A DNA stretch of 34,904 nucleotides. Origin: an uncultured Marinospirillum sp. (GTDB lineage Bacteria; Pseudomonadota; Gammaproteobacteria; Pseudomonadales; Halomonadaceae). Both the position numbers and the translations under genes were made by a program. Within the stretch, counting starts at the first letter, position 1, and each line of letters begins with the position of its first letter. Shown piece after piece: positions 3,158-13,299 of the stretch. The notes under the pieces are model-generated. The model saw nothing but the letters and a program-made list of their open reading frames with translations, ran no database searches and was not told the DNA's origin. Location: NCBI GenBank assembly GCA_947624795.1, contig CANQLY010000006.1:1-34904 (forward strand). The letters are read 5' to 3'.

Positions 3158-3193
3158 AAAAAAAGCCCCGAACTTACTAGCTCGGGGCTTTTT
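3158..3193. terminator. Intrinsic terminator, second copy of the RND operon terminator
   Basis: AAAAAGCCCCGA-loop-TCGGGGCTTTTT; nearly identical to the hairpin at 10018-10050. Confidence 0.85.
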
Positions 3194-3214
3194 ATTATTA
3201 CTACTCTATAAAAC

Positions 3215-3437
3215 TTAATCGTGTGGAATGCCACGCTTACGATAAATCGAGTAGTAAAGCAGCGGTATGACCACCAGCGTTAGTAGGGTTGATACTAACA
3301 AGCCAAAGATTAGTGAAATGGCCAAGCCGTTAAAAATGGGGTCATCTAAGATAAAGAAGCCACCCACCATCGCTGCCACCGCGGTTAGAATAATTGGCTG
3401 GGCTCTTACGGCACTGGCTTTAATTACTTTATCTTCC
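3215..3437 (-). pseudogene. 3'-terminal fragment of an RND efflux permease (about 74 codons), duplicate of 10096-10318
   Basis: Aligns without gaps to 10096-10318 (offset 6881); 146-bp identical core; nearly all differences synonymous; shares the ...YRKRGIPHD stop. Confidence 0.95.
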
Positions 3438-3463: not shown

Positions 3464-4900
3464 CTATTTCCTTCCTGCATTTGATAAATATCCACAATCA
3501 TTAGGTTTGTCAAATGAAGCGCTGCCATCAATATATTCACGTATCATCCGACCAACCTTTGTAATAGTAGCTTTATCAGTAGAAATAAAACCCATAGGCA
3601 TCGTTACGGGCAGCGTTTCAGGCAAAGAAAAATGGTATATGACAACGATTAACTCATCCGCTAGATGAAGTACTTCTACATTACCATCAAGGAATCCTTC
3701 AATCAGTCCTTTTGCGGAGCTGCTGTAGTTTTTAAGCTCATGCTTCCAACTATTTGCAGTGCGATTATCTTCTGGTCCTGAGAGTGGTACATACAAAGTC
3801 GGTTTATATAGGCTTTTATCTTTGGTTGATGCCTTTGTGATGAGATCGCTTAGTGCAACTAATAGTTTGTCACTTTTCCCCCAAAATGGATCTGATGGTG
3901 CAATCCATGTGAAAGAACCTCCACTCATGTCATCTGATTTGGCATTAATGCGCGAAACCAGAATTGGCGCTAAAGTAGCTTGTAAGCGGTCCCAGTTTTC
4001 TTGGCTATATATTTGACCAACAAAGGTTGCTCGAACAGATCCATTGTGTTCTTCCAGTAACTGTAAGTCTTCAATAAATCGAGGATTGACTGAATTGGTT
4101 TTTGGATCGAAAACCTTTAACGTCTCCTCATCACCAACCAGCATCATCGACTGCATTATTGCTAGAGTGTTGGGGGGTCGCTGAACCTCTGATAGTTGAG
4201 TTGCTATAAGATTATGAACAAGCTCTGAGTTACTAAGCTGATCAAAATCGTCACGTTCTACGGCTGTTCCGTCCATTCCAATTTTAAATTTTGTTGTCAG
4301 GCGTAGAGGAAAGTCACGTAACTTGTTCACCGCGTTTACAGTATAAACATATGGTCTTTCTTTAGTTTCTTGGCTCATGCTTTTTGGTAAAAAGCCATTA
4401 TCAAGTATCTGGTTAAATTGATGCTGGAAATGTTTTTCTACTAGTTTTTCACTCTTAGACGTGTTGTTGTTTTCTACACTAAGCGAAACGCCATTTCTCC
4501 AACCATCATTGATATTCTGATTACTAAAACAACTAAAACTAGCTAGATCAAATGACAGTGAAGCCCCGCTGTCTAGTACAGCTGAAAGCTGTGGAGTTTC
4601 TCCTAAATCAGTAAAATAACCTTGTGACAAGCTAGTGAGCATAATTCGCCCGTCTTCTGATAAAGTCAATTCTCCTCGCTGAACAAGGTCTGAGACTGCC
4701 TCTTCCGTTTCAAGTCGGCTCAGCCCGAAGTAAATCGATATTTGAGACTTACTCATTGGTGCTAAGTGGATAAGACGAAGTACAAACTCACGAATAAACG
4801 GCAAGCCTTTTTGAGATACGTATGAAAACTGGATGTTGAACCGCTGAGCAGGCAAAAGAAAATCAACTTCTTGGTAAGTCATTTTATTATCTATGCTCAT
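3464..4900 (-). CDS. Uncharacterised 478-aa protein with N-terminal wHTH-like segment; second gene of the putative defense cassette
   Basis: Full-length ORF; N-terminal IREFVLRLIHLAPMSKSQISIYFGLSRLETEEAVSDLVQRGELTLSEDG reads as a winged helix; start overlaps the upstream gene's stop (ATGA, 4897-4900). Confidence 0.85.
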   Translation of the reverse strand: MSIDNKMTYQEVDFLLPAQRFNIQFSYVSQKGLPFIREFVLRLIHLAPMSKSQISIYFGLSRLETEEAVSDLVQRGELTLSEDGRIMLTSLSQGYFTDLGETPQLSAVLDSGASLSFDLASFSCFSNQNINDGWRNGVSLSVENNNTSKSEKLVEKHFQHQFNQILDNGFLPKSMSQETKERPYVYTVNAVNKLRDFPLRLTTKFKIGMDGTAVERDDFDQLSNSELVHNLIATQLSEVQRPPNTLAIMQSMMLVGDEETLKVFDPKTNSVNPRFIEDLQLLEEHNGSVRATFVGQIYSQENWDRLQATLAPILVSRINAKSDDMSGGSFTWIAPSDPFWGKSDKLLVALSDLITKASTKDKSLYKPTLYVPLSGPEDNRTANSWKHELKNYSSSAKGLIEGFLDGNVEVLHLADELIVVIYHFSLPETLPVTMPMGFISTDKATITKVGRMIREYIDGSASFDKPNDCGYLSNAGRK

Positions 4901-7900
4901 GATTTCTTACCGCTCTGCTTTGTAGTAACAAATGAATACCCTGCATCGTGCCCGCGCTCGCTCATAAAATGGACTACTGTTCCCAGAGGCAGGTCTTTAT
5001 TATTGCCTTTCCACATGTCCGCATTGCCAACGATTAATAATCTGTCCATAGCTCGAGACATAGCTACGTTTATTCGATTTGGAGTCCTTAGGAAACCCGG
5101 GCTTTGACGTTTGTCTGAGCGTGTTAGGGATACAATAATGATGCGATTTTCCTTTCCTTGGTAACTATCAACGGTATCAATCTTAACAATATCTTTAAGC
5201 CCACTACTCCAGACTTCTTGGTTAAACTTCTGTCTAAGGATGCGTTTTTGCTCGGCATACATGCATATAACACCAATTGCCGCCTCATCCTTACTGACCA
5301 GCTCAGTGAGCTGTTCTAGGAAATCTCCGTTTTCTGAGATTTCTTTCAAAAGAGCGATAATTTCATCGGCTTCACATCGGTTATAAATACTACTTCCATT
5401 GCCCTGTGAGTGATTCGCTTTTGCTCCCAAGTTTGCTGTATCAAGCCATGTGACAACACTCTGCAACGCCTTAGGTGCGCTACTGTAAATATCTGGAATG
5501 CTTCGATCACCATTTCTGAGCTTACCTTTATAAAAGGTTTCAGAAACAAGATTTCCGATAGGAATAGCCATTCTGTATTGTGTTAGCAAAGCTGCGCTAA
5601 CTTGTTCGCCGTACTTAGAGTTAAATGCCCTCGCAAAGTCGCTACGCAGAACTTCATCTAGATCAGTGTGTTTACTACTTATACCTAGCTTTCTGGCTAG
5701 GGCTTGCTTGTGAGCATCCGAATACAATGGAGGCAACTGCAGATGGTCCCCAACTAGCAATACACGTTTAGCAGATTGCATTGCGATGGCTAATTCACTA
5801 GCGATTGAACGAGCGGCCTCATCGATAATTACCCAATCGTAAATATTCTCATGAATACCTATGTGTCCTTGACCTATACCTACGCAAGTCCCTGTAACTA
5901 ACTGCCTGGAACGAGCAAAAAACTCATCATAATTGACACGTTCACCTGATAGGGCGTTTTGCATATCCCTTGATATCTTGGCTAATGCTTTAACTCGTGA
6001 GGCCTCGTCAGGCCTCACTCTATAATCAGAGCATAGCTTAGATATAACTTTGTCTTTTGCATCAGAGATTCGAGTTGTTTCATCCATGAAAATGCCAAAC
6101 TGAGCAGATAGATCTTCGCGTATCGAACTGTCTAATTCTACTGCGATTTTTTTCAACTGTTTGATGTCTTCCTCATCTTTCAGGTCGTTAACACGGTAAA
6201 GAAGAGTCTCAAGATGGTCGATTTTTGAGAAGAGTTTCAATTCTGCTAGAACGACACTAGAAATAAAGTCAGAATCAAGACCTAACGCATCGCTCAGAGC
6301 TTCAACTCTGTATTTACATTCCGCATTAAAAAGCTCTCTTTTTTCAGCAGTTATTGCGTTTGAGTAAATATCTTTTAGTCCGTTCGACACCGCGCCTTCT
6401 CTGTTACTAAAACGAACAACCTCAAGTTTTGTGTCCAAGCGAGCACAGTGCGACCTTATTCGCTCTGCTGCGGTATTAACCGCTTCGTGTGACTGACTTA
6501 CCAATAAAATACGTTTTGTCTGTTGCTTCTCAACTAAGTAGTGAACAAAAGCTGCAATAAATTCAGTCTTACCTGTTCCTGGAGGGCCTTGTAGAAGAGA
6601 TAGGGGACCATTATTGGCTAGTTTTGCGAATGCGTCTCTTTGTTGAGCGTTTAGGCTGATACTGTTTCCATGTTGGTCTTCTCTGTCATAACGTGAGAAA
6701 TCATTTTCTGTCAGCTCAATACCGTACTGAGTTGCTGGTTTTTCACATGAAGGGTCAAACAAGTCCAGCAGCTCTGGCATTGCGCCTTCACGATCTAGCA
6801 AGCGTTCGAGAGCTACTTTTCTCCTGCGATATGAGGCGCGATCTTGTTTGGTGCGAAAAAAAACAGTATCACCATCTCTTAAGTGATAAGCAGATCCTCT
6901 TGTTTTTTTCAATCGTACGGCGTTTAGTGCAGAGGATTTGAGGCAGACTTCACCTAAATGTTTTTCCGCACCCTCATCATCTACAAGTATCGCCTCAACT
7001 TCATCTGAAGCACTAAATCCGCCTAATGGATCATCAATATCAGCTGAATAAGGCATGATTATCTCGCCGCCAGACTTTTGGAGAATCTCAATATCCCCAC
7101 TAAGCTCAATATTTGGAAGGGATTGTGTTTCGGTTTCGAGAATTGCACGCCAAAGCTTTGTGGTCGAGATATCTATTTCAGCCGTTGCTTGCCCCTCTTC
7201 AGCTTGTCTCTGTAATCTATCAAAGGCTTCTTTTAATTCGTTCGCAATAGCATCACTGTTTTTTTGTTCTTCATCCTGGTCTTCATTAGATTCAAGTGAT
7301 TCCGGCTCTGTTGCAAGCTTGAGTGCGCGATAAAAAGCTTCATTTTCATTTAAAATAAGCGACAATGCTGACATGTTTTGATGCTTGCCAGGGATAATCT
7401 TAATGACCGTATTTAGCTCAAACTGACTTTCATCCGCATCCGACTTACCTACCGTTGAGCGTTGCCTAGGGTTAAAACCAACGATAAGAGCTTGTTGCTC
7501 TTTGCTGTATATAGCAGAGAAAACACCTCCAATACCTGAAAATGTAACTCTTACATCAGCAGGGTTTTTATTGCTTTTTTCGACACGAACAAATAAATGC
7601 CCGTTATCAGGGAATAATGTAATAACTTCGCTTGCATTGCCTGCAACTATTTCAATTACTTCCTGATCCGTTCCTTTTTCAGCTGAAAGTAGATTTTTCT
7701 TAAAGCGACCAAGATCTTTAAAACCAAACTGAGAGTCATCTAACTCTGTCTTTGCAGCTCTAGCAATCTCAGGGAAATGTTCAGAATCTTCGCCCCAAGA
7801 TATTCCGAGGAGCTCACAAGACATCTTGATAACAGCAAAGTTGTCTCGCTCAAATGGAGTGCATCCATCAATGTTCTCAGGGCTGTACATGTGGTTCTTA

Positions 7901-9900
7901 GGTTCGTCAGCAGAGTGAGTAAAATCTGGTATATCTATTAAATAAAGGGATTGTGTTTCCTTTTCGATCATCACATTCTGAGGGTGAAGGTCGCCATGAG
8001 ATATTCCTATGCTATGCAAGTGCTCCACAGCAGCGATAAATTTTATGACCGTATCTAGTCTTTGATCATCATCAACTGCAGCCTTATCCCAGGTATCGCC
8101 ATCGACAATATCTGTTACTAAGTACAGCGCTGATGATTTCGATGCTATTCCGTAATCTCGAATTGCTGGTAAATAAGTGGGTTTTATTGAGTTAAGCTTA
8201 TCTAAGGACTTGAGAAATATGAGTATCTGGAAGTTAGATATAGATGAGCTACTTTGACCCCCACAGTCTAGCCAAGCCTTAACCATCCGTCCTTCTGAGA
8301 CATAAACTTCTTTCTCTGAAGTTTCAACAATAAAATCATTATCTTCTCGGAATAGCCGTGAATAGTTTATATCGTGTCTGTATGCATCAAGCTCAGAATC
8401 ATCAAATGTTGGAATGGTTTCGCCCGCAGGTTCCGCAAGCTTTAGAGCATGGAAAAACTCGCCTGCAGACGCGTATTTTGCAGCGACTGCATCCAATAAC
8501 ACTTCTGCATACCACTGCTCACAGCTAAGCATTTCATCCTGAATTGTTGTCAGGCTATTTGGTGAAATACGCTTGCCATTTAGCAAGTGCCAGATAATTA
8601 ACCCTAAGGCATGAACGTCTTGTTGAAATGGTGATAAGTCAGCACAATCTAGCATTTCGCGAGCTTCTGTTGCACCTACAGATAGCCCTTTGCGGTAATC
8701 ACCAACGGTACCAATTGGCTTGTGGTACGCAGATATGAAGTTTGAAAGCGCAATTTCCTTTGCGGGTGAAATCCAGAGACTATGGTCTGCAATATCACGG
8801 TGGGCGATCTTCATCTCATGCAGATCGCCAAACTTTGCTATTAGTAGTTTTGCGATGTTCAGTCGGTCGACATCAGAGAGGGTTTTACTGTACTTGCCAA
8901 TAAATTCGTTAAAGCGGAAATGACCGGGTGGTAACTCGTACACTTCACTGTATTCTGCGGTTACCTCTTCCTTTTGGAAGCTAGTAAGTGATCGTAAGCA
9001 GTGGTTGTATAGGTCTCTATTTTTATGGTTTATATATTGTAAAACTTCACGCTCACGAGAAACGATTTCAGCACGCCCCTCAGTTGTGTAAGCCTTGTTT
9101 CCCTCAATGTGCTTAAAGTTCCATATGCGAAGCAGGGCTTCAGTATTGGTTGAGATCTCAGATTTTGCTATATATTCTTTATAGGCTTTTTTCGGATGCT
9201 CAAAGATTATTTCTTTGGCCTCATAACCATCAACCCGCATAGTTTTTGGAGCGGTTTGTGGCCCTAGAAAAAGCTCATCAAAGAGAGGAAAGTCTTGATT
9301 CAATACCTGAGCGTTTGGATGTGGTCTAAATTTTGCGTTAAACATCTTTTGATCTGCGAACTTTAAAAAACTATCAAGTGAGATCGTGTGCAGCAGTTGG
9401 TTTTCTGGTAATTGACTAAAGTCTGCATCTCCTGTCATCACAACAAAGAAATGTACATGGGGTGGGTAGCCTTTGTTGGTAAACCTGTGAGTAACTCTTG
9501 ATAACTTTTTTTCAAGAGTTTGTTTTTTGACTCGGGTAACACTCACAGGTGAACGCCGCATATTTTGATTGCCTTTATACCAAGTATCGCCCTGTGCAGT
9601 TATTGGATAGTGATTCCAATCCTTCAATTCTACAATTATCACATTACAATGAGTGACAATAATTAGATCGAACTCTCCGTCATGATTTTTAGAGTCAATA
9701 AAACGAAAACCTGCGTATCCTTTCCATGGAAAGATTCCATTATCACTTTTACCAAAGCTGCTTTTTAGCTGATCTCGTAGTGATCCACCAGTGGAAATCT
9801 GTTTTGGTGATGATAATTCGATAGAAAACGCAGCTTTGATTTTATTGATGGCTGTTATTTCTTGCTCTTGCAAGCCACCATCCCAGATTTCTATTTCCAA
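4897..9900 (-). CDS. NERD nuclease-like / (pseudo)kinase / kinase-like / SF1 DNA2-NAM7-Upf1-type helicase fusion, 1667 aa
   Basis: NERD: GEFDLIIVTHCNVIIVELKDW. Kinase-like segments: HRDIADHSL and HGDLHPQNV...LIDIPDF. SF1 helicase: GPPGTGKT, VIIDEAA, LLVGDHLQLPP, DTVDSYQGKE, NVAMSRA. TTG start with AAGGA upstream. Confidence 0.9.
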   Translation of the reverse strand: MEIEIWDGGLQEQEITAINKIKAAFSIELSSPKQISTGGSLRDQLKSSFGKSDNGIFPWKGYAGFRFIDSKNHDGEFDLIIVTHCNVIIVELKDWNHYPITAQGDTWYKGNQNMRRSPVSVTRVKKQTLEKKLSRVTHRFTNKGYPPHVHFFVVMTGDADFSQLPENQLLHTISLDSFLKFADQKMFNAKFRPHPNAQVLNQDFPLFDELFLGPQTAPKTMRVDGYEAKEIIFEHPKKAYKEYIAKSEISTNTEALLRIWNFKHIEGNKAYTTEGRAEIVSREREVLQYINHKNRDLYNHCLRSLTSFQKEEVTAEYSEVYELPPGHFRFNEFIGKYSKTLSDVDRLNIAKLLIAKFGDLHEMKIAHRDIADHSLWISPAKEIALSNFISAYHKPIGTVGDYRKGLSVGATEAREMLDCADLSPFQQDVHALGLIIWHLLNGKRISPNSLTTIQDEMLSCEQWYAEVLLDAVAAKYASAGEFFHALKLAEPAGETIPTFDDSELDAYRHDINYSRLFREDNDFIVETSEKEVYVSEGRMVKAWLDCGGQSSSSISNFQILIFLKSLDKLNSIKPTYLPAIRDYGIASKSSALYLVTDIVDGDTWDKAAVDDDQRLDTVIKFIAAVEHLHSIGISHGDLHPQNVMIEKETQSLYLIDIPDFTHSADEPKNHMYSPENIDGCTPFERDNFAVIKMSCELLGISWGEDSEHFPEIARAAKTELDDSQFGFKDLGRFKKNLLSAEKGTDQEVIEIVAGNASEVITLFPDNGHLFVRVEKSNKNPADVRVTFSGIGGVFSAIYSKEQQALIVGFNPRQRSTVGKSDADESQFELNTVIKIIPGKHQNMSALSLILNENEAFYRALKLATEPESLESNEDQDEEQKNSDAIANELKEAFDRLQRQAEEGQATAEIDISTTKLWRAILETETQSLPNIELSGDIEILQKSGGEIIMPYSADIDDPLGGFSASDEVEAILVDDEGAEKHLGEVCLKSSALNAVRLKKTRGSAYHLRDGDTVFFRTKQDRASYRRRKVALERLLDREGAMPELLDLFDPSCEKPATQYGIELTENDFSRYDREDQHGNSISLNAQQRDAFAKLANNGPLSLLQGPPGTGKTEFIAAFVHYLVEKQQTKRILLVSQSHEAVNTAAERIRSHCARLDTKLEVVRFSNREGAVSNGLKDIYSNAITAEKRELFNAECKYRVEALSDALGLDSDFISSVVLAELKLFSKIDHLETLLYRVNDLKDEEDIKQLKKIAVELDSSIREDLSAQFGIFMDETTRISDAKDKVISKLCSDYRVRPDEASRVKALAKISRDMQNALSGERVNYDEFFARSRQLVTGTCVGIGQGHIGIHENIYDWVIIDEAARSIASELAIAMQSAKRVLLVGDHLQLPPLYSDAHKQALARKLGISSKHTDLDEVLRSDFARAFNSKYGEQVSAALLTQYRMAIPIGNLVSETFYKGKLRNGDRSIPDIYSSAPKALQSVVTWLDTANLGAKANHSQGNGSSIYNRCEADEIIALLKEISENGDFLEQLTELVSKDEAAIGVICMYAEQKRILRQKFNQEVWSSGLKDIVKIDTVDSYQGKENRIIIVSLTRSDKRQSPGFLRTPNRINVAMSRAMDRLLIVGNADMWKGNNKDLPLGTVVHFMSERGHDAGYSFVTTKQSGKKS

Positions 9901-9928: not shown

Positions 9929-9943
9929 AGCTTAACTTAAGCT
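9929..9943. promoter_or_regulatory. 15-bp perfect palindrome AGCTTAA-C-TTAAGCT upstream of the NERD-kinase-helicase gene; candidate operator
   Basis: Direct reading of the sequence, 29-43 nt upstream of the start codon. Confidence 0.4.
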
Positions 9944-9960: not shown

Positions 9961-9994
9961 AGGTTGTTTTTTTCTAAACTAGAAAAAACAACCT
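9961..9994. repeat. Long near-perfect hairpin in the cassette leader (AGGTTGTTTTTTTCTA-AAC-TAGAAAAAACAACCT)
   Basis: 15-bp stem with one bulged T and a 3-nt loop, between the RND terminator and the cassette. Confidence 0.7.
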
Positions 9995-10017
9995 TATAAA
10001 AACTATTTATCTCGCAA

Positions 10018-10050
10018 AAAAAGCCCCGAATTTCTAGCTCGGGGCTTTTT
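10018..10050. terminator. Intrinsic terminator of the RND operon
   Basis: AAAAAGCCCCGA-loop-TCGGGGCTTTTT just downstream of the RND stop codon. Confidence 0.85.
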
Positions 10051-10095
10051 CATTGCGTCTCTAAAAACTACCGCTTTAAAATCTACTACTAAAAC

Positions 10096-13000
10096 TTAAT
10101 CGTGTGGAATCCCACGCTTACGATAAATTGAGTAGTAAAGCAGCGGTATGACCACCAGCGTTAGTAGGGTTGATACTAACAAGCCAAAGATTAGTGAAAT
10201 GGCCAAGCCGTTAAAAATGGGGTCATCTAAGATAAAGAAGCCACCCACCATCGCTGCCACCGCGGTTAGAATAATCGGCTGAGCCCTTACCGCACTGGCT
10301 TTAATCACCGCATCTTCCCAACAAGCGCCTTCTCGAATCGACTGGTTAATAAAGTCCACCAGCAAGATAGAGTTACGCACAATTATCCCCGCTAGGGCAA
10401 TCATGCCGATCATACTGGTTGCAGTGAATTGTGAATTAAGCAACGCATGCCCCGGCATAATGCCGATCATGGTTAAAGGAATCGGCGCCATAATCACTAA
10501 AGGCACTAGATAAGACTTAAACTGCGCTACGACTAGCATGTAAATAAGTATCATACCCACGGCATAGGCAATACCCATATCACGGAAGGTTTCGTAAGTG
10601 ATCTGCCACTCACCGTCCCATTTAATCGCTGCTGTATCGGGCCAAACTGGTTGGTTGATAAAGTATTGTTCGGGTGCATCCACTTCATCACTTAAAGTGA
10701 ACACAGCATCAAACATACCGTAAAGCGGCGAATCTAATTTGCCGGCCATATCCGCCATTACATAGTTCACTGGCAGTAAATCTTTGTGGTAAATAGAAGC
10801 CTGCCAATCGGCGGCTGTTACTTTAGCAAACTCTGACAAGCTCACTAGCTGACCTGAACGATTCCGCACGCTTAACGACAATAGTTGCGAAGCTTGGGCT
10901 TTATCGCCTTCGGATAGCTGCAAACGTATTGGCACTGGGTATTTCATTCGTTCATCGTGTAGGTAGCTCAGTTCAACCTGCCCTAAAGCGATGGATAAAG
11001 CTTCAACTAGCTGGCCTTGGGCTACGCCTAAACGCGCCGCACGGTCACGGTCTACCTGAATTAACCAACGATTAGCACTAGCTTCTAACGTGGTATCCAC
11101 ATCAATAACATCATCGGTGCCTTTAAGTAGCGTTTCTACTCTACGAGTCATCGCCGCTCTTACGGCAGGTTCTGGGCCATAAATTTCAGCAACAATCGGT
11201 GCTAAAACGGGCGGACCCGGTGGTACTTCTACCACTTTTACGTTGGCATTAAAGCGTTCACCTATGGCTTGCAAAGGCGCACGAACCGACAAAGCAATGG
11301 GGTGAGAAGCTAACTTACGATCACGACGGTCAACCAAGTTAACTTGAATATCGCCCATGTGTGGGTCTGCACGTAAATAATACTGACGCACTAGGCCGTT
11401 AAAGTTAATCGGTGCCGCTGTGCCAGCATAGGTTTGCCAGCTCATCACTTCGGGTACGGTTTCTAGGTACTCACCCAGCGCCAGCAGTACTCTTTGCGTT
11501 TCCTCAACGGGTGTGCCTTCTGGCATATCAACAATCACCTGAAATTCAGATTTATTGTCGAAGGGTAGCATTTTCATCACTACCGCTTGGAAGGCTGGCA
11601 ACATGGCCGCAGCTATGGTTAAAAACACCACCGTTACACCTAAAATAACACGGCGCTTACGGCTTTCACCCAAGAAAGGACGCATGACTTTATCGAAGAA
11701 GTTAAGCACTCGATCTTTCTTGGCTTCAGCTTTAGTATCACCTGAATCATGGCCTTCATGCTTCATTAGCTTAACGGCTAACCAAGGCGTCACTACAAAG
11801 GCAATAATGAGTGAAATCAACATACCCGCCGAGGCGTTAATGGGGATAGGGCTCATATAAGGCCCCATCAAACCCGTTACAAACGCCATAGGTAAAAGTG
11901 CAGCTATAACCGTAAAGGTTGCCAAAATGGTGGGCGCACCCACTTCATCAACGGCTTTAGGAATTATTTCTACTAGGGATTTGGTGCCTAGCTTCAGGTG
12001 TCGGTGAATGTTTTCCACCACCACTATGGCATCGTCCACCAAAATACCTATCGAGAAAATTAATGCAAAAAGTGACACTCGGTTGAGCGTAAAGCCCCAA
12101 GCCCAAGAGAAAAACAGGGTAATCGCTAGGGTAATAACCACCGCAATACCAACTATTAATGCTTGGCGCCAGCCTAGTGCCGCTAAAATAAGTAGCACCA
12201 CCGAACCTGTGGCAAACAGTAGCTTGGTAATTAAAGTATTGGATTTATCTGCCGCTGTGTAACCGTAATCCCGGGTCACTAAAACCTCAACACCTTGCGG
12301 AATCACTCGGTCTTTAAGTAGTTCTAAGCGTTCAGTAACCGCTTGAGTAATATCAACAGCGTTTTGACCCGGCTGTTTAGCGATGGCTAAAGTAACTGCC
12401 TGAGCTAACTGGCCAACAGGACGCTCACCTGCCGGTCCAAAACCAGTCATCACGCTTTGTGCTGGCACTTTGCCACCACGGGTCACTTCGGCAATGTCTT
12501 CTAAGAAAACCGGCGCACCTTCATACATGCCTACAACTAGGCGGCGCACTTCATTTATTTCACTTAATAAGCTGCCAGCCTGAACCGGTAAAGCTGTGCC
12601 ATCTTGTACTACCCAAGCTTCTTGTGACGTTGCGTTAGCAGCTTGCAAGGCTTGTTGAATGTCATTTAAAGCAAGGTTGTAACCACGCAAGCGTGATGTA
12701 TCGAAGATAACCTGCACTTCATCATTGGCACCACCTAGGGTGTAAATATCACGTGTGCCAGGAATACGTTTTAATTCTGTTTCTAAGGCATGAGCAACGC
12801 TAGTTAACTTTTCAGCAGTGAAATTAGCATCGTCACTAAAAAGCGTCAGCGCCATAATTGGTACATCATCTATGCCTTTAGCTTTAATTAAAGGCGGCAA
12901 AGTACCTAGGTTCTGCGGCAACCAATCTTGGTTGGTATACACCTGATTATAAAGACTAACCAAAGCCTCTTGGCGTGGAATACCCACATCAAACTGTACA

Positions 13001-13299
13001 GTAATTACCGCCATGCCATGACGTGAAACAGAGAACACATGCTCCACATTGGCCATTTCACTCATCACCTGCTCGGCAGGCGTGGCAATGAGGTGTTCCA
13101 CTTCAATAGGACTGGCACCGGGAAAGGCAATAAAAATATCGGCCATGGTGACGTCTATTTGTGGCTCTTCTTCTTTAGGCGTAACTACCACCGCAAATAA
13201 ACCCATCAGCATACCGGCGATTGCCAATAAAGGGGTTAGCCTAGAAGTTTGGAAAGCAGCCGCAATACGACCAGAAATCCTTAACTTACTATCGCTCAT
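10096..13299 (-). CDS. RND efflux transporter permease (AcrB/HAE1-type superfamily)
   Basis: 1067 aa, RND architecture; ILVDDAIVVVENIHRHL, GPPVLAPIVAEIYG, GIIVRNSILLVDFINQ. Confidence 0.95.
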   Translation of the reverse strand: MSDSKLRISGRIAAAFQTSRLTPLLAIAGMLMGLFAVVVTPKEEEPQIDVTMADIFIAFPGASPIEVEHLIATPAEQVMSEMANVEHVFSVSRHGMAVITVQFDVGIPRQEALVSLYNQVYTNQDWLPQNLGTLPPLIKAKGIDDVPIMALTLFSDDANFTAEKLTSVAHALETELKRIPGTRDIYTLGGANDEVQVIFDTSRLRGYNLALNDIQQALQAANATSQEAWVVQDGTALPVQAGSLLSEINEVRRLVVGMYEGAPVFLEDIAEVTRGGKVPAQSVMTGFGPAGERPVGQLAQAVTLAIAKQPGQNAVDITQAVTERLELLKDRVIPQGVEVLVTRDYGYTAADKSNTLITKLLFATGSVVLLILAALGWRQALIVGIAVVITLAITLFFSWAWGFTLNRVSLFALIFSIGILVDDAIVVVENIHRHLKLGTKSLVEIIPKAVDEVGAPTILATFTVIAALLPMAFVTGLMGPYMSPIPINASAGMLISLIIAFVVTPWLAVKLMKHEGHDSGDTKAEAKKDRVLNFFDKVMRPFLGESRKRRVILGVTVVFLTIAAAMLPAFQAVVMKMLPFDNKSEFQVIVDMPEGTPVEETQRVLLALGEYLETVPEVMSWQTYAGTAAPINFNGLVRQYYLRADPHMGDIQVNLVDRRDRKLASHPIALSVRAPLQAIGERFNANVKVVEVPPGPPVLAPIVAEIYGPEPAVRAAMTRRVETLLKGTDDVIDVDTTLEASANRWLIQVDRDRAARLGVAQGQLVEALSIALGQVELSYLHDERMKYPVPIRLQLSEGDKAQASQLLSLSVRNRSGQLVSLSEFAKVTAADWQASIYHKDLLPVNYVMADMAGKLDSPLYGMFDAVFTLSDEVDAPEQYFINQPVWPDTAAIKWDGEWQITYETFRDMGIAYAVGMILIYMLVVAQFKSYLVPLVIMAPIPLTMIGIMPGHALLNSQFTATSMIGMIALAGIIVRNSILLVDFINQSIREGACWEDAVIKASAVRAQPIILTAVAAMVGGFFILDDPIFNGLAISLIFGLLVSTLLTLVVIPLLYYSIYRKRGIPHD

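What the first reader, a model, noticed from the sequence alone, without database searches (positions are those of the whole stretch)
3464..9900. Candidate new defense system: NERD-kinase-kinase-helicase giant protein with a wHTH partner
Seen: a two-gene minus-strand operon (5004 bp + 1437 bp) joined by a 4-nt ATGA overlap and placed as an isolated insertion beside an efflux operon. The 1667-aa protein combines NERD, two kinase-like and SF1 Upf1/Dna2-type helicase segments. Established: PglW of BREX-like systems joins kinase and NERD-type domains, and Mokosh joins a Ser/Thr kinase with a COG1112-like SF1 helicase and a PLD nuclease. Inference: this cassette may be a Mokosh/PglW-like defense system in which NERD is the nuclease and the 478-aa protein is a new component. 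I cannot exclude that databases already list it.
Basis: partly seen in the sequence, partly recalled or inferred. Interest (0 to 1): 0.88.

Follow-up and report, generated by a model that had tools for sequence, protein, structure and literature searches.

The report
Mokosh type I antiphage defence operon
This gene pair is a copy of Mokosh type I, a bacterial anti-virus system that public databases already list, sitting as a mobile insert beside an efflux-pump gene; only the details of which part does the cutting add something.

Summary
The 1667-aa protein matches the PADLOC MkoA model over its whole length (2068 bits, residues 1-1663 to model 1-1603). The 478-aa protein matches MkoB (423 bits, 4-473 to 5-452). 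This is Mokosh type I, in the long-MkoA subtype; a 2023 review already lists NERD under Mokosh type I.
The pair is adjacent in 8 of 8 full-length relatives from species genomes and on plasmids. About 6% of complete E. coli genomes carry a close MkoA. Neighbours of relatives include Wadjet, Avs1, Gabija and Septu genes.
What tools add: kinase 1 is a pseudokinase in 15/15 MkoAs, kinase 2 is intact in 14/15, and NERD keeps its PD-(D/E)xK residues in 15/15. MkoB is a winged helix plus, by a low-confidence model, a PLD fold without HKD motifs. In two short-MkoA relatives MkoB carries HKD PLD domains and MkoA has no NERD. So NERD probably replaces PLD as the nuclease.
The cassette lies between ~280-300-bp direct repeats of the RND-pump 3' end; two congeners have the empty site. 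Interest is low to moderate.

The parts
4897..9900 (-). mkoA, 1667 aa (NERD - pseudokinase - kinase - SF1 Upf1-like helicase)
   Evidence: PADLOC PDLC03921 MkoA 2068.5 bits, residues 1-1663 to model 1-1603/1607
9436..9729 (-). NERD domain (aa 58-155), motif E76-x-D78 ... E91-x-K93
   Evidence: Pfam NERD 37.7 bits over cut-off 22.1; D78, E/D91 and K93 in 15 of 15 homologues
8401..9213 (-). kinase-like domain 1 (about aa 230-500), predicted pseudokinase
   Evidence: PDB kinase profile hits 327-502; R258 in place of the beta3 Lys and loss of the DFG Asp in 15 of 15 homologues, Asn of the catalytic loop lost in 14 of 15
7801..8313 (-). kinase domain 2 (about aa 530-700), catalytic residues present (K541, HGD 635-637, N642, D656)
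   Evidence: Pfam Pkinase best stretch 580-665; motifs kept in 14 of 15 homologues
5020..6654 (-). SF1 Upf1/Dna2-type helicase (aa 1083-1627), Walker A GPPGTGKT, Walker B DEAA, QYRM, VDSYQGKE
   Evidence: Pfam AAA_11/AAA_12; NAM7/Upf1 best PDB hits; motifs
3464..4900 (-). mkoB, 478 aa
   Evidence: PADLOC PDLC03923 MkoB 422.9 bits, residues 4-473 to model 5-452/454
4610..4798 (-). winged helix of MkoB (aa 35-97)
   Evidence: AlphaFold2 model pLDDT about 80 here; Foldseek hits to MarR-type winged helices, prob 1.0, rmsd 1.6-3.3
3524..4033 (-). PLD-fold domain of MkoB (about aa 290-459) without HKD motif
   Evidence: Foldseek hits NucT, Nuc, Zucchini, TrmB, MITD1, FAM83 on a low-confidence model (pLDDT 56.8); no conserved HKD motif in 15 homologues
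3158..3437 (+). left copy of the direct repeat: terminator plus 3' end of the RND pump gene (remnant)
   Evidence: 88% identity with gaps to 10016-10318, perfect identity in the middle; 97% protein identity to pump residues 994-1067
10016..10318 (+). right copy of the direct repeat: terminator and 3' end of the intact RND pump gene 10096-13299(-)
   Evidence: pump and downstream genes adjacent in congeners G007 and G006

Best explanation
The two genes are mkoA and mkoB of a Mokosh type I anti-phage system, in the long-MkoA subtype, acquired as a mobile cassette at the 3' end of an RND efflux gene. Shown by sequence: MkoA carries an intact-looking NERD nuclease, a pseudokinase, an intact-looking Ser/Thr-type kinase and a complete Upf1-like SF1 helicase. 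MkoB carries a winged helix and, probably, a PLD fold that has lost its catalytic HKD motifs. Inferred mechanism (about 0.4 likely): MkoB and the helicase form the recognition part, engaging phage nucleic acid (DNA, or RNA as Upf1-type helicases can). The pseudokinase/kinase pair holds the complex off and releases it by phosphorylation, and NERD then cuts the nucleic acid that the helicase translocates on. Which nucleic acid is cut, what is phosphorylated, and whether the cell dies are unknown.
For: Full-length matches to MkoA and MkoB. All 8 MkoB relatives in alignment A2 also match both MkoB models. The pair is adjacent in 8 of 8 full-length MkoA contigs from species genomes and on plasmids of Vibrio, Enterobacteriaceae, Acinetobacter, Pseudomonas and Moraxella. 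MkoA is in 334 of 5426 E. coli genomes. Neighbours of relatives include Wadjet JetA/C/D, Avs1a/b, GajA, PtuA-like and ZorD/DpdE-like genes, and TIR and CBASS-effector genes. Literature: NERD and PLD listed for Mokosh type I (PMC10952713); type I has helicase and PLD in separate genes plus a kinase domain (PMC11672841). Catalytic motifs. MkoB fold and HKD loss. Two short-MkoA relatives with PLDc_2 in MkoB and no NERD in MkoA.
Against: No phage assay was possible, and activity of this copy is unproven. The MkoB model is poor (pLDDT 56.8, pTM 0.51), so the PLD fold there is likely rather than certain; the profile comparison with PLD-bearing MkoBs matched only the N-terminal part. One review calls the Mokosh mechanism unknown (PMC12926258).
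Confidence: 0.88

Rival explanations
1. A new defence system distinct from Mokosh, in which NERD-kinase-kinase-helicase plus a wHTH protein form a new kind.
For: No NCBIfam equivalog and no Pfam family for the 478-aa protein. The long form differs from short-MkoA/PLD-MkoB systems.
Against: PADLOC already models exactly this long MkoA and this MkoB. The literature lists NERD under Mokosh type I. The long form is common in E. coli.
Confidence: 0.04
2. A BREX type 2 / Pgl fragment: PglW plus a partner.
For: The NERD-kinase part matches PglW (97.5 bits in PADLOC; 83.7 bits in NCBIfam). The NERD - pseudokinase - kinase order is that of PglW and some DndF proteins (PMC12839542).
Against: The NCBIfam PglW score is far below its cut-off of 990 bits. 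PglW ends in winged helices and an inactive STAND domain, not an SF1 helicase. No pglX/pglZ/brxC was seen beside it, though the rest of the window was not annotated gene by gene.
Confidence: 0.02
3. A Mokosh type I system in which MkoB still is the nuclease through a divergent PLD active site, with NERD accessory.
For: A PLD fold is predicted in MkoB, and PLD is listed for Mokosh type I.
Against: No conserved HKD motif in 15 members; E409 is invariant about where an HKD His would be expected, and the invariant residues do not include His, Lys or Asp. NERD motif residues are conserved in 15 of 15.
Confidence: 0.12
4. A decayed or house-keeping operon with no role against phages.
For: Isolated position; no other defence gene was noted nearby.
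Against: Both frames are intact and all catalytic motifs are present. The locus is absent from congeners and flanked by repeats. Homologues sit in defence islands and on mobile elements.
Confidence: 0.03

Closest known systems
Mokosh type I (MkoA PDLC03921 + MkoB PDLC03923), long-MkoA subtype
   Same: Both proteins match end to end; same gene order and pairing; NERD listed for Mokosh type I
   Different: Nothing essential; about 70% identical to E. coli/Vibrio plasmid copies, in a new host and insertion site
Mokosh type I, short-MkoA subtype (PDLC03920 + PDLC03922; loci L188, L189)
   Same: Kinase plus Upf1-like helicase in MkoA; MkoB shares the N-terminal winged-helix region
   Different: There MkoA lacks NERD and MkoB has two HKD PLD motifs; here MkoA has NERD and MkoB lacks HKD
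Mokosh type II (MkoC)
   Same: SF1 helicase similarity (116 bits)
   Different: Single protein with a C-terminal PLD nuclease, no NERD (literature)
PglW of BREX type 2 and a subset of DndF
   Same: NERD - pseudokinase - kinase module in the same order
   Different: C-terminal part is winged helices/STAND (PglW) or a P-loop core (DndF), not an SF1 helicase
MAD6 kinase of the MADS system
   Same: NERD-kinase part matches MAD6 (117 bits, residues 70-455)
   Different: Below its cut-off of 460 bits; the MAD6 model is 612 positions long, so the helicase half has no counterpart

Membership tests
Mokosh type I | MkoA: kinase domain plus COG1112/Upf1-like SF1 helicase | tested here: met
   PADLOC 2068.5 bits full length; Pkinase and AAA_11/AAA_12
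Mokosh type I | MkoB encoded next to MkoA | tested here: met
   MkoB 422.9 bits over 4-473; 4-nt overlap; 8 of 8 linked relatives
Mokosh type I | PLD-family nuclease in the second gene (definition as given in PMC11672841) | tested here: inconclusive
   PLD fold predicted in MkoB (low-confidence model) but no Pfam PLD match and no HKD motif; NERD present instead. PADLOC nevertheless models this form as MkoB
Mokosh type I | Protection against phages | not testable with these tools
   Needs plaque assays
Mokosh type II | One protein with helicase and C-terminal PLD | tested here: not met
   Two genes; MkoC match only to helicase parts, 116 bits
BREX type 2 / PglW | Score over the PglW equivalog cut-off and full-length match | tested here: not met
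   83.7 bits against cut-off 990, residues 58-443 only
BREX type 2 / PglW | NERD - pseudokinase - kinase module | tested here: met
   literature. A shared module, not membership
MADS (MAD6) | Score over the MAD6 equivalog cut-off | tested here: not met
   117.2 bits against cut-off 460

The most novel reading that the evidence does not exclude
Mokosh type I falls into two machines with interchangeable nucleases. In one, MkoB cuts through an HKD PLD domain. In the other (this one), MkoB is a dead PLD/winged-helix adaptor, and a NERD - pseudokinase - kinase cassette shared with PglW and DndF has been fused to the helicase as the cutter and its switch.
Probability: 0.5. Interest if true: 0.42.

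Novelty: new member of a known kind. Interest (0 to 1): 0.22.

Why it matters
It closes the 'new system' claim. It also gives a concrete, testable split of Mokosh type I by nuclease (NERD in MkoA versus HKD PLD in MkoB), and places Mokosh beside PglW, DndF and MAD6 as users of one NERD-kinase module. One review lists the mechanism of Mokosh as unknown. If the swap is right, one pair of point mutants in a lab E. coli would say which domain is the effector.

Tried and rejected
A new-system reading was rejected on full-length PADLOC matches. PglW/BREX was rejected on score and missing C-terminal parts. Scanning sampled genomes of the class with the MkoB model found no second full-length copy among 369, and the MkoA model rang on helicases and kinases almost everywhere, so those counts say nothing firm about prevalence. 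MkoA-like loci in G114 and G246 turned out to be a different, three-gene arrangement without PLD, so they were not used for the NERD/PLD comparison. A viral-contig scan with MkoA found no relative; an MkoB scan could not be run because no stretch was conserved enough. Profile comparison of MkoB with PLD-bearing MkoB matched only the N-terminal part. The second structure job was not used: sequence evidence for MkoA domains was already clear. The window's organism could not be named.

Full report
Observation. The two minus-strand genes are present as described: 4897-9900 (1667 aa, TTG) and 3464-4900 (478 aa, ATG), overlapping by ATGA. Pfam places NERD at residues 58-155, kinase matches in two stretches, and an SF1 helicase at 1083-1627, all above cut-off. 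A profile search of the PDB separates two kinase segments and finds Upf1/NAM7, Sen1 and Dna2 as nearest helicases.

Identity. PADLOC-DB (2023) matches the large protein to MkoA over residues 1-1663 (2068.5 bits) and the small one to MkoB over residues 4-473 (422.9 bits). These are the two genes of Mokosh type I. A 2023 review lists both NERD and a PLD-like domain under Mokosh type I (PMC10952713). Another paper gives the definition: helicase and PLD nuclease in separate genes, plus a Ser/Thr kinase domain, in type I; one fused gene in type II (PMC11672841). One review lists the mechanism as unknown (PMC12926258); a paper on Asgard archaea states that Mokosh degrades viral transcripts (PMC11291487).

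Conservation and context. The species-genome scan gave nine close MkoA relatives. In the eight not cut off by the contig end, an MkoB lies directly downstream. On plasmids, MkoA covers at least 80% of the query in 155 records and MkoB in 148; among the best-scoring rows both sit side by side. A megablast with the E. coli copy finds it in 334 of 5426 complete E. coli genomes, nearly all on chromosomes. Neighbours of relatives include Avs1a/b, Wadjet JetA/C/D, GajA, PtuA-like and DpdE/ZorD-like genes, and TIR and CBASS-effector genes. A pair about 29%/18% identical lies in a Pseudomonas phage record beside integrase genes.

Catalytic state. Across 15 MkoAs, NERD keeps D78, an acidic residue at 91 and K93 in every sequence. 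Kinase 1 has Arg at the beta3-Lys position (R258) and has lost the DFG Asp in every sequence, and the loop Asn in 14. Kinase 2 keeps the Lys, HGD, Asn and Asp in 14 of 15. All helicase motifs are present. So the order is nuclease - pseudokinase - kinase - helicase. The NERD - pseudokinase - kinase part is the module described for PglW and for a subset of DndF (PMC12839542; PMC10853773), and it scores against PglW and MAD6 below their cut-offs.

MkoB. Pfam sees nothing significant. An AlphaFold2 model from nine sequences is poor overall (pLDDT 56.8), but the winged helix is at about 80 and the C-terminal third has alternating strands and helices. Foldseek against the PDB returns PLD-fold proteins: NucT, Salmonella Nuc, Zucchini, vaccinia F13, phosphatidylserine synthases, and TrmB, MITD1 and FAM83 (PLD folds without enzyme activity, from my own knowledge), besides MarR-type winged helices. 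No conserved HKD motif is found in 15 MkoBs; the single regex match, in L025, is not shared by any other member. By contrast, two relatives with a short MkoA (L188, L189) have a MkoB with Pfam PLDc_2 and two HKD motifs, and their MkoA has kinase and helicase but no NERD. The inference is that the nuclease moved: HKD PLD in MkoB of one form, NERD in MkoA of the other. The sample of the PLD form is only two, so this is a lead, not a rule.

Insertion. The 3' end of the RND pump gene with its terminator (10016-10318) is repeated at 3158-3437, at the far end of the cassette, 88% identical with gaps and with a perfectly identical core. In congeners G007 and G006 the pump gene and the downstream carboxymuconolactone-decarboxylase-like gene are neighbours with no cassette. 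MkoA has no full-length match in the seven sampled congeners. The cassette is 40.8% G+C against 45.4% for the right part of the window. Integration at the 3' end of the pump gene, by a recombinase acting in trans or by recombination of a circle, fits; no integrase was noted in the cassette.

Mechanism. Shown: domain content, motif conservation, pairing and mobility. Inferred: the helicase with MkoB recognises and moves on phage nucleic acid, the kinase pair gates the complex, and NERD cuts. Confidence in the identity is about 0.95, in the mechanism about 0.4.

Verdict. A correct and careful reading of raw sequence, but of a known system. The remaining interest is the probable exchange of nuclease between Mokosh type I forms and the shared module with PglW and DndF.

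Noticed in passing
L171:78-6648 (G114:C1) and L172:944-7892 (G246:C20): Three overlapping genes: a separate kinase (368/465 aa), a MkoA-like helicase (1116/1143 aa, about 260 bits to short MkoA) and a 706/708-aa protein without PLD or NERD, MkoB-like only at the N terminus in one. Possibly a split-kinase relative of Mokosh.
   Followed up: partly
L053:3257-3526 (G003:C305): In another congener a truncated RND-pump 3' end also lies next to the same downstream gene with other genes on its far side, so the pump's 3' end may be a recurrent insertion site. Draft genome, could be assembly.
   Followed up: partly
L026:19346-24484 and L029:9212-14452: Pseudomonas copies of the pair lie beside sets of three recombinase/integrase-type genes plus a small TetR-annotated gene, one on a plasmid and one in a phage record: a likely vehicle for moving the system.
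   Followed up: no
window 9929-9943 and 9962-9993: A short palindrome (AGCTTAACTTAAGCT) and a 32-bp hairpin (GGTTGTTTTTTTCTAAACTAGAAAAAACAACC) lie between the pump terminator and mkoA; could be regulatory or a cassette end.
   Followed up: no
window about 680-1010, + strand: Fragment resembling an EAL (cyclic-di-GMP phosphodiesterase) domain, '[12 protein letters not shown]...', apparently a pseudogene remnant; read by eye only.
   Followed up: no
G000:C34:7153-7422: A second NERD-domain protein (open frame 277 aa) in the same genome.
   Followed up: no
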